Virus record (IMG/VR): IMGVR_UViG_3300041409_000599
Span: 1 to 64,000 of that record
DNA from: a virus
Strand: one strand, 5' to 3'
Length of the DNA: 64,000 bases
Numbering within the stretch: the stretch's first letter is position 1; each line of letters begins with the position of its first letter. The notes under the pieces are model-generated. The model was not told where the DNA came from, searched no databases, and was given only the letters and a program-made list of their open reading frames with translations. Made by a program: the position numbers and the translations under genes. Of the stretch, positions 1 to 27,070 are shown one piece after another.

Positions 1-59
1 ACCAGCCGCATACGCCGTGGCATGACCCTCCAACAGCACTTCCAGAACTGCGTCACTTC

Positions 60-431
60 ATGCTTCAGGTGCATGGCATCTACCATCGCAACGGGGACGG
101 CTCCAGCCGTCAGGAGATCATTCGGCGATGCCGCGCTGGCGACGTTCTGCGCTTCGTGCCTGAACCTGATAACCCGCATGATCAGTACGCTATTAAAGTA
201 TGCAGGGACAATGGAGATCAGCTCGGTTATCTCGATGCCGGCAACGCCATGCGCGTCACCGGGGAGTTATCCATTGGCTGGACCTATCGCGTCACTGTGG
301 ATGAAATCTTTGCCGCTGATCGACGTGGATATTACGGGTGCCGCATCCGCATAGGCGTATTAACCATGAGTGCCCGGACGGAAGCGCGAAGGAAGAAGAA
401 AGGTGCGGCAAAGGATTCAGGGGCTACTTAA
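60..431 (+). CDS. HIRAN domain protein
   Basis: This is a 123-residue stand-alone HIRAN domain. Residues about 5-70 carry the family pattern: an aromatic/glycine start, a GD.L.F..EP.NP.D.YAIKV core (EPDNPHDQYAIKV) and G.QLGYL. HIRAN domains bind DNA ends or damaged DNA in Rad5/HLTF-type enzymes, and small free-standing versions occur in phages and mobile elements. The C-terminal 20 residues are basic (RTEARRKKKG). The frame stays open upstream to the window edge, so the first ATG at 60 may not be the true start and the gene may begin outside. The role here is unknown; DNA-end binding is an inference from the family. Confidence 0.7.
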   Translation: MLQVHGIYHRNGDGSSRQEIIRRCRAGDVLRFVPEPDNPHDQYAIKVCRDNGDQLGYLDAGNAMRVTGELSIGWTYRVTVDEIFAADRRGYYGCRIRIGVLTMSARTEARRKKKGAAKDSGAT

Positions 432-657
432 CAGACTTTTCGAATCCTGGGAGCTTTGTGCCGCAAAACGGACAGAATTTCACATCGGTCAGAACCAGGT
501 AGGGGCCTTCATCGCCATATTGGCACCAAACGGCCCACCCGCTGATTCCGCCAACTTCGCAAAACGTTCCTGAATCAAATTGCCTTTTCAATTCGTCGCA
601 ACATAGCATTGCGCGTATGTTCTTTTGAAAGCTTTCGAGTTCATCAATAATGGGCAA
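424..657 (-). CDS. small Cys-motif hypothetical protein
   Basis: This 77-residue protein has a TTG start with GAGG about 8 nt upstream. The C-terminus holds CPFCGTKLPG, half of a zinc ribbon; other cysteines (CC near residue 19, C33) could complete a metal site. It ends tail-to-tail with the HIRAN gene, overlapping it by 8 nt. I recognise no function. Confidence 0.45.
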   Translation of the reverse strand: MPIIDELESFQKNIRAMLCCDELKRQFDSGTFCEVGGISGWAVWCQYGDEGPYLVLTDVKFCPFCGTKLPGFEKSVK

Positions 658-670
658 AGGGTTGCCTCGT

Positions 671-856
671 TTACTTCAGGTTTGCCAGATACCAGATGAG
701 CAGAAACGGCAGCGCAAACAGAAAGCTGGCAATAGCGATCTTCCAGACCAGAACGTACATCTGCATAATCGTGATCTGTTGAACAGCGCTGGCCGCTGTC
801 GGCGGCGCGCCGGCAATCGGTTTCTCGTCCCACAGCTTTGATCCCTGAGCTGACAT
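671..856 (-). CDS. small single-pass membrane protein
   Basis: This 61-residue protein has AAGGAG placed for the ATG at 856. The N-terminal 30 residues are Ala/Pro-rich and polar. Residues about 33-57 form one strong hydrophobic segment rich in Leu, Phe and Ala, ending YLANLK. It lies 3 nt downstream of the 860-1249 gene and is probably in the same minus-strand transcript. Function is unknown. Confidence 0.5.
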   Translation of the reverse strand: MSAQGSKLWDEKPIAGAPPTAASAVQQITIMQMYVLVWKIAIASFLFALPFLLIWYLANLK

Positions 857-859
857 GGG

Positions 860-1249
860 TTACTCCTTACTGGCGTCTGTAGCCACAAACATTTCATCCG
901 GCCATTCCGCCCGGCCTATCAGTCCATTCAATTCTCTAATCCTCAACTTGCGCGCCGTGTAGTAAGAGAATGACCTTTTCACGTCGCCTTCAGGACCGCC
1001 TTTTGATCCGCTGGCCGGCATGGCCAGGCCGCCGCTCTTCAGCAGCTTCACCAACTCGTCAGGATGCATGGCTGCGCCGCGCTCATCCAGCAGCGTGCAG
1101 ACGCCATCAATGGTATCGATCCCATGAAAGCGGAAGAGTGACATCAGATCGGCTTCAAGCTGGCGCGTGTGACGTTCCACGATCTCTCGGACCTGCGCCG
1201 ATACTTCCGGTGGTAGTTCTCGTTTTGGCATGGCTCCCGCGGCGCTCAC
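860..1249 (-). CDS. hypothetical phage protein
   Basis: This 129-residue protein has a predicted helical N-terminus (ELPPEVSAQVREIVERHTRQ). It starts at a GTG that overlaps the upstream gene's stop (GTGA); an in-frame ATG lies at 1231 behind GGGAG. Translational coupling to the 1246-1671 gene is likely. No domain is recognised. Confidence 0.55.
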   Translation of the reverse strand: MSAAGAMPKRELPPEVSAQVREIVERHTRQLEADLMSLFRFHGIDTIDGVCTLLDERGAAMHPDELVKLLKSGGLAMPASGSKGGPEGDVKRSFSYYTARKLRIRELNGLIGRAEWPDEMFVATDASKE

Positions 1250-1671
1250 ATTACTTCCTCAACAAAGCCAAACAGCGGCCGGTTATGGCCATCGATGAAG
1301 AGCATGTGTTGGATGTGACCAACGATGCTAGCATATTGACGCTTCAGGTTCTCCACCTGAATGTGAAAATCTGTCGGCGACGAAGCGCTCCTGGCTGCTT
1401 TCACCGTCAGCAGCGCGTCCACGGCCTCGCGGCTGGCCCGCATCACGGTGTCATATTTCTCGCCGTCAGGTGGCAGCACTTCGGCCTGGCCTCCGGCAAA
1501 ACGGATCGTGACTTCAAGGTTGTGCTGGGCCAATTTCAGCGCTTGCTCCCACGCCGGCGTCCGCTCGGACGATGTGGGAAAGTCTATGTGGCGATAAGCT
1601 CCGAGCAGCCGAATCGGTGTATCGGGGTCTATAAGAGGATCTGTGCGAAGTGGTGTTTCAGGCGTCATCAT
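1246..1671 (-). CDS. hypothetical phage protein
   Basis: This 141-residue soluble protein has an extended Pro/Thr-rich N-terminus followed by predicted helices. It overlaps the next gene by 4 nt, so the pair is probably co-translated. No known motif is seen. Confidence 0.55.
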   Translation of the reverse strand: MMTPETPLRTDPLIDPDTPIRLLGAYRHIDFPTSSERTPAWEQALKLAQHNLEVTIRFAGGQAEVLPPDGEKYDTVMRASREAVDALLTVKAARSASSPTDFHIQVENLKRQYASIVGHIQHMLFIDGHNRPLFGFVEEVM

Positions 1672-1719
1672 GCTTTCTTCCCGTAAACTGAATTCCTTCC
1701 TACCTTTTACCTGGTGCCG

Positions 1720-2484
1720 TTATTCGGTGAACTGCGCCGCCGCGGCCAGTGTCTGGCGATGCGCGCCCACCATCTCTGCTACCTGCTCTGATGTGGCCTT
1801 CTCTGGAACTGTCTCCCTGGCCCACAAGGTGCAGCCCCACCACAACAGTGAAACAAAATAGGCCAGCATTCCCGTCCGTCGAACGAGCGCCGCGGTTTCC
1901 CGCGAAGTGATACCGATCATGAACATGGTTGCCCCGTTCACGCTCAAAGATATGAGTAAGCCAATAGCGATCCTTTGCGGCCATGGCCTCCAGCCAATTC
2001 CCAGATGCCGCGAATAAATGATCAGAATGACCAGTGAGATCAGTAGCGCCGAAACCAGCGCGGCCTCCAGACCGCCCATGACCACGACGTATTTCTCCGG
2101 ACCCAGCGGCCGTAACTCAATGGCCAGAAGCGCGCATGAACTGATGGCGGCGGCCAGCCATGCTCCAATGTTTCGTGGGACCCACGCCGGCACGCGCGCC
2201 CAGCGTTTTCCAAAGGTCTTGCGATAAAGTTCGCCGATCGCCACCGCCATTAGAACGCACTGCACCACTGAGATTGCGTAATAAGACCAAAAGTATGTCC
2301 ATGGTCGTCCGGAAGGTATGGCCATCAGATACCAGGTGGTCAATGCGGAGAAATAGATAAACAAGCAGAATGCGGGATATCGCTTCCCGGCGTCGCGCCT
2401 CAATAGCATGATAGAAAGCGCTGACTGGATTGCCGCGATGGCAAGCCATAGGAAGACATCGAAGCTAAATAGGTAAGCTAGCAT
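1720..2484 (-). CDS. multi-pass membrane protein (about seven helices)
   Basis: This 254-residue integral membrane protein has an ATG start behind GAGGTG. Hydrophobic segments lie near residues 5-25, 38-55, 65-85, 108-124, 133-157, 168-190 and 203-220, giving about seven helices. The C-terminal 30 residues are polar. Host bacteria carry similar uncharacterised seven-helix proteins, so this may be a conversion gene rather than a virion or replication gene. No enzymatic motif is visible. Confidence 0.7.
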   Translation of the reverse strand: MLAYLFSFDVFLWLAIAAIQSALSIMLLRRDAGKRYPAFCLFIYFSALTTWYLMAIPSGRPWTYFWSYYAISVVQCVLMAVAIGELYRKTFGKRWARVPAWVPRNIGAWLAAAISSCALLAIELRPLGPEKYVVVMGGLEAALVSALLISLVILIIYSRHLGIGWRPWPQRIAIGLLISLSVNGATMFMIGITSRETAALVRRTGMLAYFVSLLWWGCTLWARETVPEKATSEQVAEMVGAHRQTLAAAAQFTE

Positions 2485-2566
2485 TGGGCTGCACCTCGGA
2501 AGGGGGTTGCTGAGAGGGGATGCAGCCCAATTTGTAAACTATATCGGTTCGCGATGCAAGAACAGT

Positions 2567-2737
2567 TTAATTGACCGGGCACATCGGCATGCCAGGGCAC
2601 GGTGGTGGGTTGCCGCAGCAAAACATCACCGCTGCGTGCGCGGGCTGCGCCTTCGCTAGGGCGATGGCTTTTTCGCTTATTGAAATCGAAGTCAGTAAGG
2701 CAAAGGCAACGATAAGCGCACGTTCTACGTATTTCAT
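2567..2737 (-). CDS. small secreted or membrane Cys/Pro-rich peptide
   Basis: This is 56 residues from the ATG at 2737, which has GGAG 6 nt upstream; longer in-frame starts lack this signal. A hydrophobic segment (residues about 8-20) is followed by a tail with CCGN..PCPGMPMCPVN, four cysteines in all. It looks like an exported peptide anchored by an uncleaved signal. Function is unknown. Confidence 0.45.
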   Translation of the reverse strand: MKYVERALIVAFALLTSISISEKAIALAKAQPAHAAVMFCCGNPPPCPGMPMCPVN

Positions 2738-2874
2738 TGTGCTCTCCATGCCGCTGATTGCGGCCATGGTTCGAATATAGTTTAAGTTGTGGCATTGGTT
2801 GCGCCTTTATTTTTAGGTAGCGATGTTCTAGTCCTATGTTGAGAATTGGTCAAATAAATAAGGGTTGGCTTAAT

Positions 2875-2892
2875 ATTGTGTTGCTTAACAAT
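2875..2892. promoter_or_regulatory. candidate operator (inverted repeat)
   Basis: ATTGT-N8-ACAAT is a perfect 5-bp inverted repeat within the AT-rich divergent gap (2738-3004) between the small secreted peptide and the XRE regulator. The size suits a dimeric Cro/CI-type repressor, so autoregulation by the XRE protein is plausible. It is short enough to be chance. Nothing else is evident in this gap. Confidence 0.25.
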
Positions 2893-3004
2893 GTGTGGTG
2901 CCATTTCGGAATCTACCGCCATCCGCTTTACAAAGTTAACCGCTATTGTTCCATGTGCATGATCATGAACGCGCCGTGATGCCGCGATGGTCCATGGTTG
3001 TAGC

Positions 3005-3283
3005 ATGGCAACGCGTAAGCCCGGACCATCGAAGCCCGGACCATCGAAGCCCGGACCATCGAAGATCATAGGCAAGAACATCAGGGTGCGGCTGGGCGTC
3101 CGGGTGCAGGCATTGCGCCGGCGCCGAGGCTGGGGCCAGCCCGATCTCGCTGCCGAAAGCGGCCTCGACCGCTCATACATTTCCAAAATCGAAAATGGAC
3201 GCATCGAGATCGGCCTCACCACGCTGGAAGTCCTGGCCAACAGCTTCGGGATGACGGTGTCACAATTCATGCGCGGTGTGTGA
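3005..3283 (+). CDS. XRE-family HTH regulator
   Basis: This is 92 residues from the ATG at 3005. After an N-terminal tail made of three Lys-Pro-Gly-Pro-Ser repeats comes a complete Cro/CI-type helix-turn-helix domain (residues about 30-90), with GQPDLAAESGLDRSYISKIENG as its core: helix 2, turn, recognition helix, then the SKIENG signature. With no linker or peptidase domain, it is either a Cro-like regulator or a small repressor. It lies on the far side of attP from the integrase and may act in the lysis-lysogeny decision. Confidence 0.85.
   Translation: MATRKPGPSKPGPSKPGPSKIIGKNIRVRLGVRVQALRRRRGWGQPDLAAESGLDRSYISKIENGRIEIGLTTLEVLANSFGMTVSQFMRGV
3017..3061 (+). repeat. three exact 15-bp tandem repeats
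   Basis: The unit aagcccggaccatcg is repeated three times without mismatch and encodes KPGPS three times at the N-terminus of the XRE regulator. Exact nucleotide identity suggests recent slippage expansion. Confidence 0.95.
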
Positions 3284-3473
3284 CCCTCTCTGCGGATGGC
3301 GGTTCCATCTTCACGCGCACATGCTTGCTACCTTCCCATATGCGCCCTTTTCGATCTCGAACGTGAACCACAACCTCTACCGTTGCGCAATTGCAGTCAA
3401 CGCCATATACGATCATCGATTCCTCGATCACGTTATCGGCTTAGTTCCATCCCAGCCATCTCTTCAGATAATT

Positions 3474-3716
3474 TCATATTGCCGGGTACACCGTTAATTC
3501 AGCGCCGCATGCGCATTTGAAATGCTCGCCTATTGCGCCATAGAGCGGTGAGAATGCCCTTCCTTGGCACAGCATCGCAGTGTGGCAGTTGGTGCAGGTT
3601 ACCTCTTGCTGCGAGAAGGCACGGGCGCGCCTGTAGTCTTTTTCGTAGTCGTAGTTGGGATCGTTGCCGATCGGGATTTGCTTCCCGTCGATTTCTTTAA
3701 ACTGACGCTCGATCAT
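3474..3716 (-). CDS. small zinc-ribbon-like protein
   Basis: This is 80 residues from an ATG at 3716, which has GGAG 6 nt upstream; longer in-frame starts exist at 3728 and 3806 without such a signal. The C-terminal half has CTNCH..MLCQ... and FKCACGAEL, together a four-to-five Cys/His metal-binding pattern. It may bind nucleic acid or protein. No specific function is recognised. Confidence 0.5.
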   Translation of the reverse strand: MIERQFKEIDGKQIPIGNDPNYDYEKDYRRARAFSQQEVTCTNCHTAMLCQGRAFSPLYGAIGEHFKCACGAELTVYPAI

Positions 3717-3963
3717 CTGTCTCTCCATCGCTGATTCGACACCGGAAATGCTTGGGACGGATCTTCCGGATTGCCGGCTTGTGTTAGGCTTGCGCCTTTG
3801 CGCCATCGCGGCTGCCTGGTTAGCGTTGCTTGGGGACGACGCGCCCGAGTTGCCGCAGTTGAAGCCTGTTTCGTCACAGGCTAGTCACAATTTAATTAGC
3901 GATTTGGAGCAATGCGGCGAGCATGAAGGCCAATGGAATCAACGCGGGGAAATCGACAGGTGA

Positions 3964-4013
3964 CAGCCCTGAAAAGGCTGGCGTCGGCGGTTCGATTCCG
4001 TCCCTGGCCACCA
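3964..4013 (+). other. attP: phage attachment site core: 3' half of tRNA-Phe(GAA)
   Basis: The 50 bases fold as positions 27-76 of a tRNA. They give an anticodon stem CAGCC/GGCTG around loop CTGAAAA (anticodon GAA, Phe), variable loop GCGTC, T-stem GGCGG/CCGTC around TTCGATT, acceptor strand CCTGGCC, then A and CCA. The preceding bases do not form a D-arm or a matching acceptor strand, so the 5' half is absent. The fragment points toward the integrase gene 57 bp away, the usual arrangement for a tRNA-targeting element. An intact tRNA would be expected at attL of a prophage, so this is most likely attP. The flanking gene-free stretch (3717-4070) also holds a 7-bp hairpin at 3863-3882 and nothing else I can identify. 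Confidence 0.85.
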
Positions 4014-4070
4014 TATTTGAATAACTTACAGACATCCATTTTCCGTTTTGGTTCCATTTGGTTCCAATAA

Positions 4071-5258
4071 TCACTGCACTGTCGTGGACCGCGTGAACGA
4101 ATCCAGTTTACGAACGGCATCGCGCTGATGCTCATCCGATGTTTGTTGGTAAATATCAATCGTCGTACTGGCCCGCGCATGCCGCATCTGCCCTTGCGCG
4201 TCCCGCACCGGTATTCCGGCTCTTTTCATCCACGTAGCAAATGACGTTCTAAAACAACGCCAGTTCACGAAGGGGATCCCTAGCTTCCGCGCCGCCGGCT
4301 TGATGTGCCTGCTCAGGATATTGTTGTCCCGCATGACAACGCCTTTTCTTACCGACTGGAACACCAGATCGTCTGGTTCTGACCTCTTGACCAGTTTGAA
4401 AGTCTGGTATCCGCCGCGACCGCCGCCGATTACAACACTCAACTCCTTCAACCGATGGATCCGCTGAATGACGTGAGGGCTCACCGCCAGGACCGTGTTG
4501 CGGGCATCGGTCTTTGGCGCGCCCCAGTCGCCACGACAGCATTTCTCGTCGATTACTATGGCGTCCTCCAGAATATCCTTCCAGCGCAATGCGGCAATTT
4601 CGCTCGGAAGTAAGCCCGTGTTGACCGCAACAAAAATCATGGTTGCGTAAGGCTCAGCTACGAGTTCAAGAACTGCTGCCGCCTGCTCCGGCGTGATATT
4701 GGGCTTTGGTGCTCTCCCAACTTTCGCCCGCGGCAAAACTACATTTCCCGCAGGATTGACTGAGACGTAAGACTGCTCTACGGCCAACTGCATCACGGTC
4801 GAAAAGCAGCTAAGCATCTTGCTCATAGAGGCATGGGCAAGATTTTTGTCTTTGAGGCCGATGAAGTATTTCTGTACTTCAATGTCGGTAGGGCGCGCCA
4901 GATCGAAGAGTGCTATATCCCCAAACGCCGGAAGCAGATGGTTTTCGAGGATACCTTCATATCGGTCAGCGTGAGCCTTCGACTGCACCGGCAGAAATAT
5001 TTTCTTGTAAACATCATCGACAAAATGCCTGAATGTGACTGCAACGCCCGGGCTGCGCGGTTGCAGGTTAAGCGGGTCCATCACGGCTGCGGCCCGCTGC
5101 TGAGCTTCCCTGAAGCCGATATCGTTTACGGCGCCCAGGACGTGCGGCACGCGTTTACGGTTCCAGTCTCCATTCTCAAACACGTCTTTCCACACCAGAA
5201 TGCGCCACTGATTGCCATGACGCTTCGGTTTGGGGTTTTGATACCGCCTCCTGGCCAT
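4071..5258 (-). CDS. int: tyrosine-family site-specific integrase
   Basis: This is 395 residues from the ATG at 5258 (GGAG 9 nt upstream); a TTG at 5360 would add 34 residues. The N-terminal part is a basic arm-binding region (ARRRYQNPKPKRHG), followed by a SAM-like core-binding domain and a C-terminal catalytic domain. Visible catalytic elements are the beta-strand Lys (PKTDARNT), box II Arg (FRTSFATWM), MRHA His and the Tyr in TIDIYQQ. The box I Arg of TGLRxSE is replaced by Leu (NTGLLPSEIAALRW), and the HxxR His is Arg. The gene points into the tRNA-Phe attP fragment. It should catalyse phage integration and excision, but the missing Arg makes activity uncertain. Confidence 0.9.
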   Translation of the reverse strand: MARRRYQNPKPKRHGNQWRILVWKDVFENGDWNRKRVPHVLGAVNDIGFREAQQRAAAVMDPLNLQPRSPGVAVTFRHFVDDVYKKIFLPVQSKAHADRYEGILENHLLPAFGDIALFDLARPTDIEVQKYFIGLKDKNLAHASMSKMLSCFSTVMQLAVEQSYVSVNPAGNVVLPRAKVGRAPKPNITPEQAAAVLELVAEPYATMIFVAVNTGLLPSEIAALRWKDILEDAIVIDEKCCRGDWGAPKTDARNTVLAVSPHVIQRIHRLKELSVVIGGGRGGYQTFKLVKRSEPDDLVFQSVRKGVVMRDNNILSRHIKPAARKLGIPFVNWRCFRTSFATWMKRAGIPVRDAQGQMRHARASTTIDIYQQTSDEHQRDAVRKLDSFTRSTTVQ

Positions 5259-5377
5259 TGCGTCAATCTCCGATCGCAACGACTCGCAGGGCTTCGTCCC
5301 CGCCACCCTACCACCGTTATATATGTGGAAATCCATGTAATTGAGCCACTTACCAGTCAACTAGCAGCCAACCGTCG

Positions 5378-5494
5378 CACCAGTTGACCTCGAAACACTA
5401 TTCCAACAGTCACCAGTTGTCAACACAGTTGTTACTGTCTAAGTAATTATTTCTGAGTTTTCCACAGAATAATGCTTTACAACCGTAACAGTTG
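5378..5494. repeat. repeated CAGTTG boxes upstream of int
   Basis: CACCAGTTG occurs at 5378-5386 and 5411-5419. Further CAGTTG copies lie at 5426-5431 and 5489-5494, and CAACACAGTTG (5421-5431) is itself palindromic. The boxes sit in the AT-rich divergent region between the integrase and the LexA-like gene. They could be integrase arm sites or repressor operators; I cannot tell which. Confidence 0.35.
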
Positions 5495-5503
5495 ATGTAT
5501 AGT
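5476..5503 (+). promoter_or_regulatory. sigma70-type promoter of the early operon
   Basis: TTTACA (5476-5481) and TATAGT (5498-5503) are separated by 16 bp. They lie just upstream of the first plus-strand early gene, whose ATG is at 5516. Transcription would begin about 5510, giving a nearly leaderless mRNA. Confidence 0.5.
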
Positions 5504-5516
5504 TCAAGGCGAACTA
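5500..5516. promoter_or_regulatory. operator candidate: TAGTTC-N5-GAACTA inverted repeat
   Basis: This perfect 6-bp inverted repeat overlaps the promoter -10 element and ends on the A of the start codon. GTTC...GAAC half-sites resemble LexA-type boxes, and the gene just downstream encodes a LexA-like winged helix. Autorepression of the early operon is a direct inference. Confidence 0.5.
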
Positions 5517-5761
5517 TGCCGCAAACAGATTCGCAACTCGAAAAGTTGACCCCGGCTGAAGCCCGGTGTCTCGCCGCTTTTAAGGCCGCGCGGCGCCGGA
5601 TGAGTCCCATACCGCCTTCCGTGCAGGACGTGGCGGACGAGATGGGAGTGACCAAGAAAACAGCGTCGGTGACCCTGCAGCAGCTTCAGGAAAAGGGAAG
5701 AGTCACCCGCGACGGCAGAAAGTCCCGGACCCTGCGCCTGGCCAGCCGGAGGACAGCATGA
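5516..5761 (+). CDS. LexA-like winged-helix DNA-binding protein
   Basis: This is 81 residues from the ATG at 5516. Residues 10-75 match the LexA N-terminal domain: LTPAEARCLAAF helix, IPPSVQDVADEMGV turn, TKKTASVTLQQLQEKG recognition helix, then a wing ending SRTLRL. The autoprotease/dimerisation domain is absent, so it cannot self-cleave like LexA or CI. It heads the early operon behind a palindromic operator and probably regulates it. Alternatives are an antirepressor-controlled switch protein or a Cro analogue. Confidence 0.8.
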   Translation: MPQTDSQLEKLTPAEARCLAAFKAARRRMSPIPPSVQDVADEMGVTKKTASVTLQQLQEKGRVTRDGRKSRTLRLASRRTA

Positions 5762-6009
5762 ACCACAAGTTTTTCCCGCAGCAGCAACGCGCATCCCTGG
5801 GGCAGTCGACCTCTGCCGACTGTCCCGATTTTTCCCTTGAGGCTGAAGCCACTCAGTTCTATCGCCCACAGCGCTTCAGCGGCTCATTGGATCGGGAATG
5901 TTACGGCGTGGTGGCCCTGCGAATTCTATATGCCGTGGCGGCGCTCGTCCTGCTGGGCATTGGATTGGCCGGGCTGGATAGGTTCGCATTTCTCTATTTC
6001 AAGAAGTAA
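5758..6009 (+). CDS. small membrane protein
   Basis: This 83-residue protein starts in an ATGA overlap with the LexA-like gene, so it is translationally coupled. The N-terminal 45 residues are polar. One long hydrophobic segment (about 50-75, LRILYAVAALVLLGIGLAGL) is followed by a short Lys-ending tail. Function is unknown. Confidence 0.6.
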   Translation: MNHKFFPQQQRASLGQSTSADCPDFSLEAEATQFYRPQRFSGSLDRECYGVVALRILYAVAALVLLGIGLAGLDRFAFLYFKK

Positions 6010-6029
6010 CCGGAAAGTGAAGGTGATGT

Positions 6030-6419
6030 ATGAGCAGCAATCCGCAAGTTGGAAACTCCGCAAAGGTTGAGCACACGCCCGGGCCGTGGAAGACCGAGCA
6101 AAACGCCAATTCCATTGACATCATCGCCGCAGACGGAACCGTTGTCGCGATACTCATCAACGAAGATGAGTTAGAAATAACCGCTGCCATGAAGGGCAAT
6201 GCCCAGGCGCTGGTCACAGCGCCTGACATGCTGGCCGTGCTGCGCTCCCTTACCGAGTTCTGTGAAATCGTGCTTGATCATGGCCGTCTCTCCGGTGGCC
6301 AAATGAAAGCCAAGTACGGCATGGATCCGATGCTTGGCTATACGTTTGTCGAAGGCCACTGCAAAAAAGCGCAGCGCGAGATTAATTCCGTCATTCGTAA
6401 AGCAGGGGGCCGCGTATGA
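6030..6419 (+). CDS. conserved phage hypothetical protein (HTPGPW type)
   Basis: This 129-residue protein has HTPGPW near its start, a short beta-rich stretch, then ALVTAPDMLAVLRSL. The HTPGPW...A.LI.APDLL pattern recurs in many phage early regions without known function. The ATG at 6030 has GAAGG upstream, and its 3' end overlaps the next gene by 4 nt. Confidence 0.7.
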   Translation: MSSNPQVGNSAKVEHTPGPWKTEQNANSIDIIAADGTVVAILINEDELEITAAMKGNAQALVTAPDMLAVLRSLTEFCEIVLDHGRLSGGQMKAKYGMDPMLGYTFVEGHCKKAQREINSVIRKAGGRV

Positions 6420-6691
6420 GTGCAGCCCGAACATTTGAATTTGCTGGCGTTGCAATGCCGCCATTGCTGCAAGCCTCTCTTGATCGCTACGCCAATGAGC
6501 ACGTCGAGACCGGCGGCTTTCTGAAGTCAGTCCTGGAAAACGATCTCTGCGAAGCGGTGTGCCGCGCGGACGAATTCAATTTTCAGTTCCTCCCAGTACT
6601 CGTCCGCTATGTCTACAACGAATTGCCGTCGCCGTGCTGGGGCAGCAAAGAGAAAGTCGCGGCATGGCTCAAGAAAGCGGTGGCCAAATGA
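6416..6691 (+). CDS. conserved phage hypothetical protein
   Basis: This 91-residue protein has the pattern GGFLKSVLENDLCEAVCRAD...LPVLVRYVYNELPSPCWGS. I associate this type with phage early regions, where it has no assigned function. It is ATGA-coupled on both sides. Confidence 0.65.
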   Translation: MSAARTFEFAGVAMPPLLQASLDRYANEHVETGGFLKSVLENDLCEAVCRADEFNFQFLPVLVRYVYNELPSPCWGSKEKVAAWLKKAVAK

Positions 6692-7197
6692 AACCCTGCG
6701 CCCACAAGTCCCGCGCTGAGGCTACCGCGTGTCCGTTCTTCCGCGCCCACAAAGCTGACCGCATTGCCCCGCTGCATGGACCCAACGAATTTACCTGGCA
6801 ACTCACCGTCCCGCAGCAGGCCATCATGGGCAGCATCGCGCAGCATGATCCGCGTCCCGTGGATACCTGCGATGTCTATGTGCCGATCCGCAGCTTCTTC
6901 CAGCACGACTGCACCGCTTATGCTTTGACGCTTTTTGAGATGCAAGCCCTGGGGCTGGTCTGGATTGACTATGACTCCAACCTTTGCGGATGGACGGCTG
7001 AGGGCAGAGAGCACGTGGAAAAAGAACTGGCCGCGGTCGGCACAACTCTGGCCATGTGGCGGCTTGCCGCCCAGGCTGAAGCGCCCAGCACGTTCCACTA
7101 TCCCGCGTCTTTTATTGATCGCATTCAATCATGCCTATCGGCCCACGACGAACGCAGGATCCTGAACGCGCCGTTGATCAGTGAGGCTGTGCAGTGA
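6688..7197 (+). CDS. hypothetical protein
   Basis: This is 169 residues from the ATG in the ATGA overlap at 6688; a longer frame upstream is shadowed by the preceding gene. It contains a Cys/His-containing N-terminus (MKPCAHKSR) and mixed alpha/beta sequence. No domain is recognised. Confidence 0.6.
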   Translation: MKPCAHKSRAEATACPFFRAHKADRIAPLHGPNEFTWQLTVPQQAIMGSIAQHDPRPVDTCDVYVPIRSFFQHDCTAYALTLFEMQALGLVWIDYDSNLCGWTAEGREHVEKELAAVGTTLAMWRLAAQAEAPSTFHYPASFIDRIQSCLSAHDERRILNAPLISEAVQ

Positions 7198-7301
7198 AGT
7201 GGCTGGATGCGGTGCCGTGGCGCTGGCGATTGGTGGCCGTGCTTTCCTTTGCTGGCGCGGTGTACGTCTACAGCCTGATGTTGATGGAGGTTACGCAATG
7301 A
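7194..7301 (+). CDS. tiny membrane protein
   Basis: This 35-residue frame starts with GTG overlapping the upstream stop (GTGA) and ends in an ATGA overlap with the next gene. The core VAVLSFAGAVYVYSLMLM is one hydrophobic helix. Exact coupling on both sides argues that it is translated. Confidence 0.55.
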   Translation: MKWLDAVPWRWRLVAVLSFAGAVYVYSLMLMEVTQ

Positions 7302-7531
7302 AGTGTTGCCCGGTTGGAGCAATCGTGAACCGCGACGAACTCCGGACAATCGCTGACGCTATCGGAATAGCGATTCAGCACATTGACATAACAATTTCCT
7401 CAGAGGAGCGCCCGAACAAAAGGTTCCATGACGCTGAATATCGACAGCGCATGAAAGGACAGAAAGAGTTGCGCAAGGAATTCATGGCTACCTTGAAGCG
7501 GGTCGATGCCGCATACGAGCGATGTTCCTAA
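7298..7531 (+). CDS. small hypothetical protein
   Basis: This is 77 residues from the ATG at 7298, the ATGA overlap with the tiny membrane gene. A longer in-frame start inside the upstream genes is less likely. It is rich in charged helical sequence, begins MKCCPVG, and has no recognised domain. Confidence 0.55.
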   Translation: MKCCPVGAIVNRDELRTIADAIGIAIQHIDITISSEERPNKRFHDAEYRQRMKGQKELRKEFMATLKRVDAAYERCS

Positions 7532-7704
7532 AGCTGCTGGCGAAGTGGTTGGGGTGCCGGCACAAAGATTTTAGTTTTCCGCAGACCCCGCGACCCGGGC
7601 AGCGACGAACGGAGGCAGCAATGATTACCGGAACTTATGTGTGCTGCCTCAACTGTGGTCAAGAGTTCGCTTACGACTGGCACGAAATGAAGGTGGTTGA
7701 GTGA
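7522..7704 (+). CDS. small zinc-binding protein
   Basis: This 60-residue protein has GCRHK near residue 11 and VCCLNCGQEFAYDWHEMK in the C-terminal part. The Cys/His set could make one zinc site. Proteins of this layout (C.H, then C..CG..F.YD...M) occur in phages with no assigned role. It overlaps the previous gene by 10 nt. Confidence 0.6.
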   Translation: MFLKLLAKWLGCRHKDFSFPQTPRPGQRRTEAAMITGTYVCCLNCGQEFAYDWHEMKVVE

Positions 7705-8207
7705 CACTCGAAGAAAAGCGCCGAGCCAAACACGTAAAACAAACCAGCGAATGGCGAAAAGCCAACCCAGATAAGGCGAAGGAGACTCGGCAGCGGTGGA
7801 CAGAGAAGAACAAAAAATACCTCCGAAAGCAATTTAATGCGTGGAGGAAAAAGTATTCCCGAATGAATCCGGAAAAGGTGAGGGCACAAAGAAAGCGATA
7901 CAGGAGCGCGCCGCAAGCCAGAGAGAAGCAGAGAGCCACCAAAATTCGATTTAGGCTGCGCCATCCGCATTACGACAGAACCAAGTACAGAACCAAGTGT
8001 GCATGCGGCGGCCTTCGATGGACGAAGAGTATAGCTTGCGGAAGTTGTGCAGGGATAGCTGCAACATTGTTCGGAGTGCCCAGCAAGCCAAATTTGCTGC
8101 TCGTTAGCAATTTAACAAAACAACAAAGGAGAAATGCGAAATGTCTACTAAGCGCAAAACGCCTAAGAGAAATGGTACTGAAGAAAATCAGACTATTAAA
8201 CCGGTAG
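7701..8207 (+). CDS. Lys/Arg-rich HNH-nuclease-like protein
   Basis: This 168-residue protein has a GTG start overlapping the upstream stop. The N-terminal 75 residues are very basic, with repeating W.K.NP.K patterns (EWRKANPDKAKETRQRW, AWRKKYSRMNPEKV). This resembles the arm that precedes HNH or endonuclease VII-type domains. It is followed by CACGGLRWTKSIACGSC, a zinc pair. No complete HNH active site is visible, so it may be a degenerate nuclease or a DNA-binding protein. Its 3' end overlaps the next gene by 67 nt. Confidence 0.55.
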   Translation: MTLEEKRRAKHVKQTSEWRKANPDKAKETRQRWTEKNKKYLRKQFNAWRKKYSRMNPEKVRAQRKRYRSAPQAREKQRATKIRFRLRHPHYDRTKYRTKCACGGLRWTKSIACGSCAGIAATLFGVPSKPNLLLVSNLTKQQRRNAKCLLSAKRLREMVLKKIRLLNR

Positions 8208-8428
8208 CACGTGCAAAACGTCGCACCTTCGCCATCACTCAGCGCGGCGTAAAAACGTCCCATGACCTGAGTAATTTCCACGCGGCGGCTCTTGCCGACA
8301 TAGATAGCGGCGCCGCCGATCTGCGCGAGATGGCGCGCATGACGGCTATCACTGGGCAGATGATCGCGCACGAGAACCTGAAACTGCGCGCCGGAATCAG
8401 GCGCGGCTTCCTAAGCTTGGGCAAATAG
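8141..8428 (+). CDS. hypothetical basic protein
   Basis: This 95-residue protein has AGGAG well placed for the ATG at 8141. The N-terminus is Lys/Arg-rich and the rest is predicted helical (DLREMARMTAITGQMIAHENLKLRAG). It lies just upstream of recT. Function is unknown. Confidence 0.6.
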   Translation: MSTKRKTPKRNGTEENQTIKPVARAKRRTFAITQRGVKTSHDLSNFHAAALADIDSGAADLREMARMTAITGQMIAHENLKLRAGIRRGFLSLGK

Positions 8429-8457
8429 CAAATCCCGATTTATCCGGAAGGTGATAT

Positions 8458-9576
8458 ATGGCAGAAAAAGTATCAGCACTCGCAACCGTTCCACCGCAGC
8501 CCGTCGCAATCGCGCCGGAGCGTAGCAGCATCCTCAACCTAGCCCCGCGCAATTTCGATGAAGCCATGCGCTTCTCCAAACTGCTGGCCGATAGCGACCT
8601 CGCGCCGAAAGACTTCAAAGGCAAGCCAGCCAACGTACTGATCGCCCTGCAGATGGGCTGCGAAGTCGGACTGGCGCCCATGGCGGCAATTCAAAATATC
8701 GCCGTGATCAATGGACGTCCATCCATCTGGGGCGATGCCGCTCTGGCGATTGTGATGGCGCACCGCGACTTTGAAAATATCAAGGAAACCTTTGAAGGCG
8801 CCAACGAGAACAAGACCGCCATCTGTGAAGTGAAGCGTAGAGGCCATGATCCGCACATCGCGCGGTTCTCCGTGGCCGATGCCAAGAAAGCGCAGCTCTG
8901 GGGCAAGCAGGGACCGTGGACGAATTATCCCGACCGCATGTTGCAGATGCGCGCCCGCGGCTGGGCCATCCGTGACAAATTTGCCGACGCCCTGCGCGGA
9001 TTGAACATCGGCGAGGAAATGCAGGACGCGCCCACCATTGAGGCCTCGACCCTGCCGCAGATCGATCCTGCCAAAGAAACGCTGAAGAATGAGATTGACG
9101 CTCTGCTCACGTCGGTCGGAGTGAACGCCGCGAACCGCATGGCCATCCTGAGCGCGAACGATGCGGACCTCGCTGGATGTCTCGCCGCGCTAAAGACCAT
9201 CAAGCTTGTGCTGACCGATGAACGTATTCCGGTCCAGCAATGGCCGGCTCTGCTGCAAAAGCAGATGCGCAACCTGGACAACTACGCCAAAGGGCTCAAG
9301 GAAGCGCACGAAAAGAAGAACTGCCAAAAGCCCGATGAATCTCCCGCGCAGCCAGCGGAGACCGCTACATCAGCGGAACCCGCTACGCCCGAGGGGAACG
9401 GATCTGCTGCCCCCAACCATGGCCAGCAGCCAGCGCATCAGGGGACGGGAGCGGCCACCTGCTCTGGCGATTCCCGTCCTGCCGCTGGACCGCAAGACGA
9501 TTTGTTTATCAGCAAAGAAGAGACACAGCCAAAACAGTCCGCCGCGAATGGCGGCAAGGGAAGATTCAAGTTTTAA
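8458..9576 (+). CDS. recT: RecT-family single-strand annealing protein
   Basis: This 372-residue protein has a RecT core (about residues 28-200). Family hallmarks include NFDEAMRFSKLLADSDLAPKDFKG, GCEVGLAPMAAIQNIAVINGRP.IWGDA and MLQMRARGWAIRDKF. RecT proteins coat single strands and anneal complementary DNA in phage recombination. The last 70 residues are low-complexity Ala/Pro/Glu-rich and end in a short acidic-then-basic tip (DDLF...GRFKF) that may recruit partners. It probably works with the Fe-S exonuclease at 10272. Confidence 0.85.
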   Translation: MAEKVSALATVPPQPVAIAPERSSILNLAPRNFDEAMRFSKLLADSDLAPKDFKGKPANVLIALQMGCEVGLAPMAAIQNIAVINGRPSIWGDAALAIVMAHRDFENIKETFEGANENKTAICEVKRRGHDPHIARFSVADAKKAQLWGKQGPWTNYPDRMLQMRARGWAIRDKFADALRGLNIGEEMQDAPTIEASTLPQIDPAKETLKNEIDALLTSVGVNAANRMAILSANDADLAGCLAALKTIKLVLTDERIPVQQWPALLQKQMRNLDNYAKGLKEAHEKKNCQKPDESPAQPAETATSAEPATPEGNGSAAPNHGQQPAHQGTGAATCSGDSRPAAGPQDDLFISKEETQPKQSAANGGKGRFKF

Positions 9577-9754
9577 CAAATTTCTGCGGCGGCGTGGATG
9601 GACACGCTACAGCAATCGAAGGGGCTGAGTACGTGAAGGCTCAGGTTACCAGTCAGCAAAGTAATTAGCTAAGTGCAGACGCCAAGAGTCGCGTCGGTAA
9701 TTTCAGCAGTGGGTATCAAGGCCCACCCGCAGAAGCAAGATTGGAGTAGCTCAT

Positions 9755-9865
9755 ATGTTCACCGACCCATACATCGACGACCTACAGCGGCAGTCCGGAG
9801 TATTTGACGGCCCACCTTACGAACAGGAAGACGACGATAACGACGACGGCCCGATAGCCGCTTAA
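9755..9865 (+). CDS. tiny acidic protein
   Basis: This 36-residue frame ends in an Asp/Glu run (EQEDDDNDDGP), with a net charge near -11. It sits between recT and the next gene with no overlapping alternative. Strongly acidic mini-proteins can mimic DNA, but that is speculation. The 178 bases upstream (9577-9754) hold nothing recognisable. Confidence 0.4.
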   Translation: MFTDPYIDDLQRQSGVFDGPPYEQEDDDNDDGPIAA

Positions 9866-9870
9866 TCACC

Positions 9871-10299
9871 ATGTCATCACCCGAGCACGTCAAACGCGAA
9901 CGCATCACCCGACGCGAAGCCGGCATTGCCGGACTGGAAGCCCTGTTTAAGAGCTACTCCATCGTCAACGTGAATGCCGGATACCACTTTCGCGTCAATG
10001 GCATGCTCGATCTTTTTCCCACCAACTACCGCTTTCACAACCTTCGCACCGGCAAGCGTGGCGACTATCCTCCACGCCCTAAGAAGAAGCTGATCCCCTC
10101 CCATTTAGAGGCTGTACTTCCAGTAGTGAACACCAGGCGTAGCCGCAATCCGCTAGCCGCAAACTTCAATAAAACTCATTGCAAACATGGACATGAGTTC
10201 ACCCCGGAAAACACAAAGACACGAATTGATCGCCCTGGCACACGGGAGTGCAGGGCATGCGAGAGGTCAAAATGCCGACGCAAGCAAACAGCAGCATAG
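9871..10299 (+). CDS. two-part phage protein with HNH-type zinc finger
   Basis: This 142-residue protein has two parts. Residues about 20-75 resemble a phage module (YHFRVNGMLDLFPTNYRFHNL..GKRGDY). Residues about 102-138 are a treble-clef-like finger, CKHGHEFTPENT...GTRECRACERSKCRRK, of the type found next to HNH nucleases. No HNH catalytic residues are seen. DNA binding is likely; the role is unknown. Confidence 0.6.
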   Translation: MSSPEHVKRERITRREAGIAGLEALFKSYSIVNVNAGYHFRVNGMLDLFPTNYRFHNLRTGKRGDYPPRPKKKLIPSHLEAVLPVVNTRRSRNPLAANFNKTHCKHGHEFTPENTKTRIDRPGTRECRACERSKCRRKQTAA

Positions 10300-11417
10300 C
10301 CCCGCCACTCAGCCAGTCACGCCTGAATCTTATGGGGTGCCCGCATCTTTACCAGAAGCGGGTGATTGAAGGGCTTCAGGAATCGGATAATCCGTTTGCC
10401 ATCCGTGGACGCGAATTCCATGATGTTCGAGCGGATTACGTTGTTCACCTGGTCGCCACACGCCAGCGCAAAGACCCGGCCAAGCTGGACGAACTGCTCA
10501 ATGACAATGCCATCAGCGAGGATGCTTATCAACTCCTCACCAACTCGCGGGATGAATTCGAAATAGATCCTGAGTCGGTTCTGCATATTGAGCAGCGCCT
10601 TTATCTGGGCGACGACTTTGAGCCAGTGGAGATCCCGAAGTTCGCGGCCTATGAAGGCAAGCCGGACTTGGTTTTAATCAACGGCGCCGAAGCCAGGATC
10701 CCGGATTACAAAACTACCTTCCAGATATTCGACGCGGACACGCCGCAGGGCCGTCTCTACTCGCTGCTGGTGATGATCCATTATCCGTTTGTGGAGCGCG
10801 TGGTCTTCGAGCTCCATTTCGTCCGGTATGGCTCGGCGAAGCGCAAGGCCGAATACACCCGCGACCAGATTTCGCATTTGAAGGGACGGGTTGCGCGGGA
10901 CCGGGATCGCCAGTTAGCCCTTCACGCGCTGACGGAGCGCGGAGAGGTAGCTCCGGCAATTCCCGGCGAGGCGTGCATTTATTGCCCGCTTCTGATGACC
11001 ACCTGCCCGAACCGCGAGATCAATGATTACGCGGTTTCCACTCCGGAAGATTTACTGAAGGAAGAAGTTTTCCTGAAGGCCAGAATCAAGCGCGTCTCGG
11101 GCCTGCTAAAGACGCATGTCAGCGTCGAGGGGCCAGTCAGCTATAGCGATGCCAATGGGCATACCTACTCGCGCGAGTTCGAGTTGAAGGAACGCACGAC
11201 GTTCCCGCTCATCCCGGTACTGGAAACGCTGATCGCCTGGACCAAGCGCACCGGCGAGGACATCACCGCGAAATTAAAGATCGGCGCCACCGAGTTGAAG
11301 CCATTGCTGAAAGCCAAGAAACGCGCGGAACTGGCGACTGAGGTTGAAGGCGTAAAGATCGTCGAACAGTACACGCAGTTCTCGCTGAAAGGCAGCGAGG
11401 ACGACGACGCAGCATGA
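10272..11417 (+). CDS. Cas4/RecB-like Fe-S PD-(D/E)XK exonuclease
   Basis: This is 381 residues from the ATG at 10272, overlapping the upstream gene by 28 nt. The domain begins SRLNLMGCPHLYQKR (C23) with RGREFHDVRADYV, then GKPDLVLING (about 131-140) and PDYKTT (about 147) as the nuclease Asp and Lys motifs. It closes with CIYCPLLMTTC (C235, C238, C245), completing a four-Cys iron-sulfur site as in Cas4, AddB and RecB-type exonucleases. It likely resects phage DNA ends for RecT, replacing RecE or lambda Exo. Confidence 0.8.
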   Translation: MPTQANSSIAPPLSQSRLNLMGCPHLYQKRVIEGLQESDNPFAIRGREFHDVRADYVVHLVATRQRKDPAKLDELLNDNAISEDAYQLLTNSRDEFEIDPESVLHIEQRLYLGDDFEPVEIPKFAAYEGKPDLVLINGAEARIPDYKTTFQIFDADTPQGRLYSLLVMIHYPFVERVVFELHFVRYGSAKRKAEYTRDQISHLKGRVARDRDRQLALHALTERGEVAPAIPGEACIYCPLLMTTCPNREINDYAVSTPEDLLKEEVFLKARIKRVSGLLKTHVSVEGPVSYSDANGHTYSREFELKERTTFPLIPVLETLIAWTKRTGEDITAKLKIGATELKPLLKAKKRAELATEVEGVKIVEQYTQFSLKGSEDDDAA

Positions 11418-11524
11418 CCGCCGCTGTGATCTTCGCAGTGTTTCTGGCCGGCGTAGTTTCCGGCGTGACGGTGGTTTTGATTTTAACCGGCCACAGATGG
11501 ACCGCGCCGCAGGAGGAGCAATAG
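11414..11524 (+). CDS. tiny membrane protein
   Basis: This 36-residue frame starts in an ATGA overlap with the exonuclease gene and ends directly before the next ATG. Residues 4-25 (AVIFAVFLAGVVSGVTVVLIL) form one membrane helix. A GGAGGAG just before its stop serves the next gene. Confidence 0.55.
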   Translation: MTAAVIFAVFLAGVVSGVTVVLILTGHRWTAPQEEQ

Positions 11525-11806
11525 ATGATTCGTGCGAAGTCAGGCGATCTGCTGATGCTCGTAATTGAGCCAGGGAACATTGATCGGATCAAAAAGAACA
11601 TGCCTATTGACGTGCCGACGGAAGGCGCGCAGAGGCTGATGATCTTTTACTCGCCCGACGTTGTCTACATGCAGGAACTATGCGCGCAAGGCGTCCCATT
11701 TGCCGAAGCGCTCGAACTGTCTCAGGTGAGGCCACCCGTACATGAGCGGCCCTACGTTCCACCGAGCGAGCTAAGAAACGTCAAGGTGTCCGGAGAACCG
11801 GCCTGA
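11525..11806 (+). CDS. hypothetical protein
   Basis: This 93-residue protein has its ATG directly after the upstream stop, with GGAGGAG 5 nt before. It has a mixed alpha/beta start (KSGDLLMLVIEPGNIDRIK) and a proline-rich end. It resembles no family I recognise. Confidence 0.55.
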   Translation: MIRAKSGDLLMLVIEPGNIDRIKKNMPIDVPTEGAQRLMIFYSPDVVYMQELCAQGVPFAEALELSQVRPPVHERPYVPPSELRNVKVSGEPA

Positions 11807-12024
11807 TGCAAGAACCAAAAACAGAAGCGTATTGGCGGGAGCGGGGATACAGGTTCTTCGAACTGTCTTCCTGTCCTGCCTGCGGCGACCCGATATCGGT
11901 ATGGGAGTCGCCGTCAGCGCACATGATCTTTCTGGAGGCGCAGACGCTGGAAACACATTTCAGTTCGTGCACCAGGGCCAGAGAGTACCGCACCGAGCAA
12001 CGCATGAAAGCAGGGGTTTTATGA
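11806..12024 (+). CDS. small zinc-finger protein
   Basis: This 72-residue protein starts in a TGATG overlap. CPAC at residues 23-26 and H..SC near 51-55 give a CCHC-type metal site. No function is assigned. Confidence 0.55.
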   Translation: MQEPKTEAYWRERGYRFFELSSCPACGDPISVWESPSAHMIFLEAQTLETHFSSCTRAREYRTEQRMKAGVL

Positions 12025-12326
12025 GGCCGCAAAGGATTCAGCGTAAGCGTACGAAGGGCTGGAAGATGCCGCCGGACACGGTCTATGTTGGCAGACCGAC
12101 AAAGTGGGGCAATCCATACAACATCGCGGACATGGATGAACCTACGCCAAACAAACGGGAAAACGCAGTGCTCGCTTACAGGATTTCCATGCTCACCGTT
12201 GGCACAGAGATAAGGCGCGAGCTTAGCGGCAAAAACCTAGCCTGCTGGTGCCCACTTGATCAACCCTGCCATGCCGATGTGTTGCTGGAAATTGCAAATC
12301 AAGAAACGCCAGAGGTCACACCATGA
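12021..12326 (+). CDS. DUF4326 family protein
   Basis: This is 101 residues from the ATG at 12021 (ATGA overlap). It carries the family marks RIQRKRTKGWKMP..TVYVGRPTKWGNP at the start and GKNLACWCPLDQPCHADVLLE at the end. DUF4326 is common in phages and some bacteria, with no established reaction; the conserved Cys/His/Asp cluster suggests an active or metal site. It precedes the SbcC-like ATPase. Confidence 0.8.
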   Translation: MRPQRIQRKRTKGWKMPPDTVYVGRPTKWGNPYNIADMDEPTPNKRENAVLAYRISMLTVGTEIRRELSGKNLACWCPLDQPCHADVLLEIANQETPEVTP

Positions 12327-14218
12327 AAATCAACCGCCTATCTCTCACCAACTTTCGTTCCCATCGCGCCACTGAGTTTGACCTCGATCGCGTGACCATC
12401 TTTAGGGGCGTGAACGGCGCCGGGAAATCCTCAATCCAGGATGCGCTGGAATTTCTGTTTACAGGAACCACGCGCCAGACTGACGCCGGCGGCCGCGGCG
12501 CCGACCTGCTGGTTTCGCATGGAACGGGAATGCGCAATCCGGAGATGGCGGTTCAGGCACGCCTTGCCGACGATCTGGCATCCATCTGCATCCAGCGCAT
12601 CGGCGGCACCAACCAGTTTGAGATCAACTGGAAGGAAGGCGACCATTGGACGCGCTATCTGGGCGACCGCGGACGGGCATGCGTTGCGGAACACATCGCG
12701 CCGCTGCCGGTCCTGCAGGCCGTTCTCAACTCGGGACGCTTCCTGTCGCTGTCGGAGAAAGAGCAGAAGAACCTGCTCACGTCGGCGCTGGCCAGCAAGC
12801 CGGTAGTCGTGCCGGACGAAATTGTTAAGCCTATGCGCAAACTGCTGGAATTGGAGGCCCGCTCCCGCCTTTGCCTTGAGGTGCCTGATGCCGCAACCGC
12901 CGATTCCATCCACAAGATTTATTACGATCTCCGCACCGATCTCAATCGCCAGATCAAAGCTCTGGGCGAACTCACCGCCACGGAGGTCCCTGCCGACGCA
13001 CCCGACCCCGCCCTCGTAAAGAAGCAGCTCGCCGACCTCAACAAAGAGCGCGATGGACTGCTTCAATCCAGAGAGAAGCGCCAGGCCAGCCACGCCGCTG
13101 ACCGCATCAGGCTATCCGAAGCGCAGCGCCAGCTTGACGCATTCAAAGACGCCATCCTCGAAGACGGCGAAGTGGACAAGCTACAGAAGACCGCCGGCAG
13201 AAAGCTCAAGGCCGCCGAGATCCAGACGGAAATCGATAATCTTACCCGGCGCATCACCGCTGACCGCGACCTGGTAAAGCAGATGAAAGACGCGCCCGAT
13301 TCCTGCCATGCCTGCGGCCGCGCGCTGGTCAAAGACGATATCACCGCCAAAGTCGACGAACTGGAATTGGCCATCAAGACCGCTGAAGGCCTGCGCGAAG
13401 AAGCCCAGGCGCGTCTCACCAAACTGGGCGACCCGGCCACGGCAGACCAGAAGATTGCCGCGCACAAGAAAGCAGTCGTTGCCACCGGATCGGCTGAGCG
13501 CGCACTCAAGGAACTGAAAGACCTGCCGGAAACCTGCGACGTCAGCGACCTCACGCAGAAGCTTGCCGCCCTGGACCTGCGCATCGCCGATGGCGGGGAA
13601 GTGCTGGCTGAGGTACAGCGTCTGGCCGGAGCGAAGCAGCAATACGACCAGACCGTCGCCAAAAAACAGGAATTGGCCAACCGCGTTCTGGCGGCAGAGA
13701 AGATCATCAACGCCTTCGGGCCCGGCGGTCCTATCCGCGCGCAGTTGGTGGGCGCCCGCATCCATGACTTTCACCGCAAACTGAACGACTCGCTTGAACG
13801 CCTCGGCTTCAATTGTGATTTCACGCTTGAGCCGTACCACGTTGAACTGACGGAAGTGCGCGACGGGAAAATCAATTCTTCGCAGATACTGAGCCCGCGC
13901 CAACTCTCCGAGTCCGAGTCCTTCCGTTTCTCCATCGCGTTCCAGATCGCCCTGGCCGAAGCTACCGGCGTGAACTTCATTGTGATCGATCGCTCGGATG
14001 TTCTGTTGCCGGAGTTGCGGTCCACGCTGGCCGAGACGCTGCTCGAGTCAAAACTTGACCAGGCCATCGTGCTCGTCGCCGGTGACCATGCACCAGTGGC
14101 GCTGCCGCCCGACGTAAAACTGTACGACCTGGCCAAAGACAGTCAGGGGCACACCGGCGTTGCCGCCGAATACAAGTACTACGTCAATGAAACCGTTTGT
14201 GAGGAGATGCCGCAGTGA
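12323..14218 (+). CDS. Rad50/SbcC-like AAA ATPase with zinc hook
   Basis: This 631-residue ATPase has Walker A GVNGAGKS at residues 29-36, directly after an SMC-type start (INRLSLTNFRSH). Coiled-coil arms flank CHACG at about 327-331, the CxxC zinc hook. The signature-like LSESESFRFSIA lies near 528, and Walker B NFIVIDRSD near 553-561, with Arg-Ser-Asp where most relatives have Asp-Glu. Such proteins tether and process DNA ends, usually with an Mre11/SbcD nuclease, which is not visible here. Its partner may be the Cas4-like exonuclease upstream. It overlaps both neighbours by 4 nt. Confidence 0.85.
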   Translation: MKINRLSLTNFRSHRATEFDLDRVTIFRGVNGAGKSSIQDALEFLFTGTTRQTDAGGRGADLLVSHGTGMRNPEMAVQARLADDLASICIQRIGGTNQFEINWKEGDHWTRYLGDRGRACVAEHIAPLPVLQAVLNSGRFLSLSEKEQKNLLTSALASKPVVVPDEIVKPMRKLLELEARSRLCLEVPDAATADSIHKIYYDLRTDLNRQIKALGELTATEVPADAPDPALVKKQLADLNKERDGLLQSREKRQASHAADRIRLSEAQRQLDAFKDAILEDGEVDKLQKTAGRKLKAAEIQTEIDNLTRRITADRDLVKQMKDAPDSCHACGRALVKDDITAKVDELELAIKTAEGLREEAQARLTKLGDPATADQKIAAHKKAVVATGSAERALKELKDLPETCDVSDLTQKLAALDLRIADGGEVLAEVQRLAGAKQQYDQTVAKKQELANRVLAAEKIINAFGPGGPIRAQLVGARIHDFHRKLNDSLERLGFNCDFTLEPYHVELTEVRDGKINSSQILSPRQLSESESFRFSIAFQIALAEATGVNFIVIDRSDVLLPELRSTLAETLLESKLDQAIVLVAGDHAPVALPPDVKLYDLAKDSQGHTGVAAEYKYYVNETVCEEMPQ

Positions 14219-14930: not shown

Positions 14931-14934
14931 AGCA

Positions 14935-19516: not shown

Positions 19517-19662
19517 AACGGCCATCACGGGGAGATGGCAGAAAGGCACGGTGAAAAATGTAAGACGAACGACAAACAGCGAAGTATTCATCCACTTCAA
19601 TTTGGAGCCCGTACTTTGGCGAGTTTCGCGGCCCCACTTTAACCAGCCAACGAGGAGACACA

Positions 19663-19980: not shown

Positions 19981-19989
19981 GGGCGAATT

Positions 19990-20238: not shown

Positions 20239-20241
20239 ACC

Positions 20242-20661: not shown

Positions 20662-20671
20662 GAGTGAGCGC

Positions 20672-21841: not shown

Positions 21842-21852
21842 AAGGAGAAACA

Positions 21853-22981: not shown

Positions 22982-23017
22982 AACCGAAAAGGGCTCGGCA
23001 GGGAGCCCTGTACGGGA

Positions 23018-23373: not shown

Positions 23374-23387
23374 GAAAGCGTGAGCCC

Positions 23388-25167: not shown

Positions 25168-25174
25168 GAGCCCC

Positions 25175-27018: not shown

Positions 27019-27070
27019 TCGACAAATCGCTCAGAATTTGTAACGAACGAATCTGCTTTTAGGGGATACG

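What the first reader, a model, noticed from the sequence alone, without database searches (positions are those of the whole stretch)
3964..4013. tRNA-Phe 3' half beside int shows an attP, not a prophage end
Anticodon arm, T arm and acceptor-CCA are intact but the 5' half is missing, with the 3' end facing int. A prophage attL would have an intact tRNA. So genes on both sides (1-3716 and 5516 onward) belong to the phage, and the target is tRNA-Phe(GAA).
Basis: partly seen in the sequence, partly recalled or inferred. Interest (0 to 1): 0.6.

Follow-up and report, generated by a model that had tools for sequence, protein, structure and literature searches.

The report
Junction between two tandem prophages

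Summary
Bases 3964-4013 are the exact 3' half of an acidobacterial tRNA-Phe(GAA) gene, and no 5' half precedes it. The reading 'attP, not a prophage end' does not hold. The window is part of an 80,460-bp virus record with a second direct copy at 73775-73841 (64 of 67 bases identical), also without a 5' half. The two copies bound a complete 69.8-kb prophage with its integrase just inside the left copy; conserved bacterial chromosomal genes follow on the right. The deciding sign is the integrase arm sites. GGTTCC(N4)GGTTCC occurs only twice in the record, just inside each end of the prophage. A different pair, GTCACA(N5)GTCACA, lies outside the left copy at the same distance. A related circular phage (G347) shows a true attP: one core, the same arm motif on both sides. 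So 3964 is best read as a hybrid junction: the right end of an upstream, related prophage (1-3963) joined to the left end of this one. The tRNA's 5' half should lie beyond the contig. Tandem prophages are known (e.g. PMC9934374). An assembly chimera is not excluded.

The parts
1..3963 (.). Right end of an upstream, related prophage (A'); continues left beyond the contig
   Evidence: Membrane gene related to one at this prophage's own right end and to one beside the attP of circular phage G347; relatives found in phage records; HIRAN and C1-type HTH domains
60..431 (+). HIRAN-domain protein of A'
   Evidence: Pfam PF08797 8.8e-10; phrog_27141 1.9e-16
1720..2484 (-). Membrane protein (memL) of A'
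   Evidence: 29% identical, 1e-22, to the G347 gene next to attP; 26-28%, about 1e-11, to the gene at record 71567-72325
2987..3283 (+). C1-type helix-turn-helix regulator of A'
   Evidence: Pfam HTH_31/HTH_3; phage regulator PHROGs
3873..3889 (+). GTCACAGGCTAGTCACA: likely integrase arm site of A', 91 nt before the core
   Evidence: Only copy in the record; same distance as left arms of other elements; GTCACA-type arm also in L082
3964..4013 (+). 3' half of tRNA-Phe(GAA): attachment core, hybrid attR(A')/attL(A) junction; weaker similarity to the second copy runs on to 4030
   Evidence: Second direct copy at record 73775-73841; exact match to intact tRNA-Phe genes
4050..4065 (+). GGTTCCATTTGGTTCC: integrase arm site of the window prophage (A)
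   Evidence: Matches only record 73685-73700, just inside the right end
4071..5360 (-). Tyrosine integrase of prophage A (start codon uncertain)
   Evidence: Pfam PF00589 3.4e-11; phrog_1 1.6e-49
3964..64000 (.). Prophage A, window part; it ends at record position 73774, total 69,811 bp core to core
   Evidence: Bounded by the two cores; terminase, RecT, exonuclease; 21 ORFs shared with circular phage G347
8458..9576 (+). RecT-like annealing protein of prophage A
   Evidence: phrog_561 9.1e-46
17747..19516 (+). Terminase large subunit of prophage A
   Evidence: phrog_2666 2.1e-16

Best explanation
The half tRNA at 3964-4013 is the central attachment junction of two tandem prophages inserted in one host tRNA-Phe(GAA) gene. 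Each phage carries the 3' half of that gene (anticodon arm to CCA) as its attP core, with integrase arm sites about 90 nt before and about 36 nt after it. Integration keeps the tRNA gene whole on its 5' side and leaves a 3' half on the far side. A second phage that recombines with either end site of the resident prophage gives the order: intact tRNA - phage A' - half - phage A - half - host. Phage A is the complete 69.8-kb element with the integrase at 4071-5360. Phage A' is seen only by its last 3.96 kb. Shown: both half copies, matching and non-matching arm sites, host genes on the right, phage-lineage genes on the left. Inferred: the intact tRNA beyond the contig, the order of events, and that the integrases use these sites.
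For: Second core 69.8 kb away without a 5' half. GGTTCC pairs only at 4050 and 73685, inside both ends; GTCACA pair only at 3873, outside. Circular phage G347 (exact 127-bp end repeat; one core) has the same TGTCAGCA arms on both sides of its attP. Right flank genes 75262-80317 lie together in two bacterial chromosomes. Left flank membrane gene related to the right-end gene of phage A and to the attP-side gene of G347. Single prophages G342 and G349 have an intact tRNA-Phe at one end and a half copy at the other. Other half copies with clearly different arms on the two sides, and genomes with one intact and several half copies. Published precedent at tRNA-Thr.
Against: The upstream prophage and the intact tRNA-Phe are not in the record. 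The GTCACA pair is only 6 bases long, and 12.5% of background 100-mers contain some pair of that kind; its weight comes from its position, its single occurrence and its recurrence in L082. No reads were available. In relatives G129 and G302 the right-flank genes do not lie near a tRNA.
Confidence: 0.78

Rival explanations
1. The core at 3964 is the attP of a single free phage, with the genes on both sides belonging to it.
For: In circular phage G347 the order is also membrane gene - core - integrase, and phage genes do lie on both sides of 3964.
Against: A second core at 73775 followed by host genes; non-matching arms at 3964 but matching arms at the two inner ends; no terminal repeat in the record.
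Confidence: 0.04
2. Assembly chimera: the end of a different phage was joined to this prophage at the shared 50-bp core, and in the real genome an intact tRNA-Phe precedes the integrase.
For: The core is shared exactly by many elements, and contigs of other genomes break at it (G041 C87 starts and ends in a core).
Against: The exact shared stretch between the two copies is about 55 bases, shorter than the longest word sizes that common metagenome assemblers use (general knowledge). Similar mixed-arm junctions appear in contigs of several other genomes, though these are also assemblies.
Confidence: 0.12
3. The left flank is a decayed remnant of an earlier element, not the end of a complete prophage; phage A inserted into the half tRNA it left behind.
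For: Only 3.96 kb is visible, and remnant-like phage DNA may lie on the right flank too (56-bp match at 74676-74731).
Against: Several left genes are open, and an arm-like site sits at the standard distance. This differs from the best explanation only in how much of the upstream element survives.
Confidence: 0.06

Closest known systems
Tandem prophages prophiT36-2a/2b at tRNA-Thr in Mycobacterium abscessus (PMC9934374)
   Different: There both prophages are fully sequenced and virions were detected; here the upstream prophage is seen only by its end, and arm sites rather than repressor frames identify the junction
Single prophage at tRNA-Phe (G342 and G349 in IMG/VR)
   Same: Same 3'-half tRNA-Phe core at both ends
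   Different: They have an intact tRNA-Phe at one end; here neither end has it
Circular temperate phage G347 (IMGVR_UViG_3300035088_000014)
   Same: Related genome of nearly the same size, same core, same position of integrase and membrane gene
   Different: One core with matching arms, a true attP; the window record has two cores and non-matching arms at 3964

Membership tests
Integrated prophage at a tRNA gene (tyrosine integrase type) | Direct repeat of the attachment core at both ends | tested here: met
   3964-4030 and record 73775-73841
Integrated prophage at a tRNA gene (tyrosine integrase type) | Tyrosine integrase gene next to one end | tested here: met
   4071-5360
Integrated prophage at a tRNA gene (tyrosine integrase type) | Same arm-type sites inside both ends | tested here: met
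   GGTTCC pairs at 4050 and 73685 only
Integrated prophage at a tRNA gene (tyrosine integrase type) | Host chromosome outside the ends | tested here: met
   Right side only: three genes together in chromosomes G129 and G302; left side is phage-like
Tandem prophages at one attachment site | Central core flanked by two different elements | tested here: met
   GTCACA arm and phage-lineage genes on the left, GGTTCC arm and integrase on the right
Tandem prophages at one attachment site | Intact tRNA at the outer end of the array | not testable with these tools
   Lies beyond the left end of the record
Tandem prophages at one attachment site | Both elements excise on their own | not testable with these tools
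   Needs reads or cultures
attP of a free phage | One core in a circular or redundant phage genome | tested here: not met
   Two cores; no end repeat of 15 bases or more
attP of a free phage | Same arm-type sites on both sides of the core | tested here: not met
   GTCACA left, GGTTCC right; the feature is met in the G347 control

The most novel reading that the evidence does not exclude
tRNA-Phe(GAA) of Acidobacteriota is an unusually crowded insertion site where many different elements stack in arrays, each with its own arm-site motif, so that the arms on either side of a half tRNA can tell a free-phage attP from an element-element seam in metagenome data.
Probability: 0.5. Interest if true: 0.45.

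Novelty: new member of a known kind. Interest (0 to 1): 0.3.

Why it matters
It corrects the phage's borders: genes 1-3963 should not be assigned to it, and it ends at record position 73774, after the window. The arm-site comparison is a simple way to separate attP from tandem junctions when only a contig is available. The survey also suggests that tRNA-Phe(GAA) is a crowded insertion site in Acidobacteriota: arm-like repeat pairs lie just downstream of 53 of 96 intact copies, against 12.5% of background stretches and about 10% on the upstream side. One literature query on acidobacterial prophages at tRNA-Phe found no paper.

Tried and rejected
Single attP: rejected by the second core and the arm mismatch. 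Circular or terminally redundant record: no end repeat of 15 bases or more. Intact tRNA with a diverged 5' half: no D-arm motif upstream, ARAGORN negative. Left flank as host chromosome: its membrane gene family gave no match at E <= 1e-15 in 257 genomes of one order, but without a positive control in that set, and that order may not be the host's; relatives were found in phage records. Integrase and membrane-gene searches by single protein in viral contigs gave almost nothing; the DNA core search was far better. Pattern searches for other GTCACA or GGTTCC ends in viral contigs gave only L127. The protein right of the second core (record 74046-74663) had weak matches in 3 of 298 genomes and did not settle whether that stretch is host. 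GC content does not mark the borders.

Full report
The observation. The 50 bases at 3964-4013 are the anticodon arm (loop CTGAAAA, anticodon GAA), T arm and acceptor 3' strand with CCA of a tRNA-Phe gene. ARAGORN finds no complete tRNA in the window or around the second copy. The same 50 bases occur exactly in about 120 genome loci, nearly all acidobacterial. In most of them GGCCAGGTAGCTCAGTNGGTAGAGCG precedes them and completes the gene; ARAGORN calls such genes tRNA-Phe(gaa).

The record. The window is bases 1-64,000 of an 80,460-bp virus record. A second direct copy of the core lies at 73775-73841, 64 of 67 bases identical (E = 2.6e-25), again without a 5' half. The two cores are 69,811 bp apart. 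Between them lie an integrase directly beside the left core and phage genes: terminase large subunit, RecT, exonuclease and a head-decoration match.

What lies outside. To the right, from 75262, come a PPIC isomerase, a histidine phosphatase and an FN3/DUF11 protein. The same three lie together in two bacterial genomes, G129 and G302: the isomerase is 70-71% identical, the phosphatase 85-89% and the FN3 protein about 50%. So the right flank is host chromosome. In these relatives no tRNA lies near the three genes, and in G129 the intact tRNA-Phe is on another contig; the chromosomal setting therefore differs between species. To the left, 1-3963 encode a HIRAN protein, a C1-type regulator and a membrane protein. 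The membrane protein is related to one near this prophage's own right end (record 71567-72325) and to the one beside the attP of a related phage. It had no strong match in 257 Bryobacterales genomes, a negative without a positive control, but relatives were found in phage records.

Controls. G347 (IMGVR_UViG_3300035088_000014, 69,388 bp) ends in an exact 127-bp repeat, so it is circular. It holds one core and shares 21 ORFs with the window prophage. Its core is therefore a real attP. TGTCAGCA pairs flank it on both sides, about 90 nt before and about 36 nt after. G342 and G349 look like single prophages: intact tRNA-Phe at one end, half copy at the other.

The deciding test. In the whole record GGTTCC(N4)GGTTCC occurs only at 4050 and 73685, just inside each end of the prophage. 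GTCACA(N5)GTCACA occurs only at 3873, outside the left core, 91 nt before it; the right-end arm is 90 nt before its core. GTCACA pairs are also the arm sites of another element at this tRNA, L082, whose integrase is 58% identical over 171 residues. If 3964 were this phage's attP, the same motif should flank it on both sides, as in G347. It does not. The core at 3964 is best read as a hybrid: right end of an upstream phage A', left end of phage A. The GTCACA pair alone would be weak, since 12.5% of background 100-mers hold some such pair; position, uniqueness and the L082 match give it weight.

The arrangement elsewhere. At least six other half copies have clearly different arms on their two sides (L046, L083, L086, L093, L115, L116); L030, L109 and L127 differ by only one or two bases in the unit. 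Several genomes carry one full-length copy and two or three half copies, and G047 and G532 have two half copies in one contig. A published case in Mycobacterium abscessus has the same anatomy at tRNA-Thr (PMC9934374).

How it works. From established knowledge of tyrosine integrases at tRNA genes: the phage core replaces the 3' half of the gene on integration, so the gene stays whole on its 5' side and a 3' half remains at the far end. Because a core persists at both ends, another phage with the same core can recombine there. Which phage came first cannot be told here.

A possible third element. The bases right of the second core (TATTTCAACATCTTACAC) resemble those that follow the core in many elements. 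A 56-bp piece of a gene in the left flank recurs at 74676-74731, 96% identical. A decayed remnant may lie between 73842 and about 74750, before the host genes.

Limits. No reads were available, so an assembly chimera is not excluded. The upstream phage and the intact tRNA lie beyond the record. That the repeat pairs are integrase arm sites is inferred from position, pairing and recurrence, not from binding data.

Noticed in passing
L004-L130, first 110 nt downstream of the tRNA-Phe core: Arm-like repeat pairs lie downstream of 53 of 96 intact tRNA-Phe copies (background 12.5%), with at least eight different motifs, which suggests a very crowded insertion site.
   Followed up: partly
record 73842-74750 (L003 13382-14290), right of the window: Possible decayed third element: element-like bases after the second core and a 56-bp copy of the window 864-919 gene end.
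   Followed up: partly
L246 (IMGVR_UViG_3300041409_000267): A 67.7-kb phage record carries the same membrane-protein family, here next to a homologue of window 16869-17750, and no integrase match.
   Followed up: partly
L125, L127, L015, L086 and G342: Related integrases (46-50% identical) sit on the other side of the core, at the half-tRNA end, so two layouts of integrase and core exist at the same site.
   Followed up: no
27553-35010: A 2,485-aa ORF, 55% identical over 1,433 residues to one in circular phage G347; not annotated here.
   Followed up: no
record 65738-66760 (L003 5278-6300), right of the window: IS1595-type transposase gene inside the prophage.
   Followed up: no
3896-4180, minus strand: An ORF antisense to the tRNA fragment reads GGQGRNRTADASLFRA; probably not a gene.
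   Followed up: no
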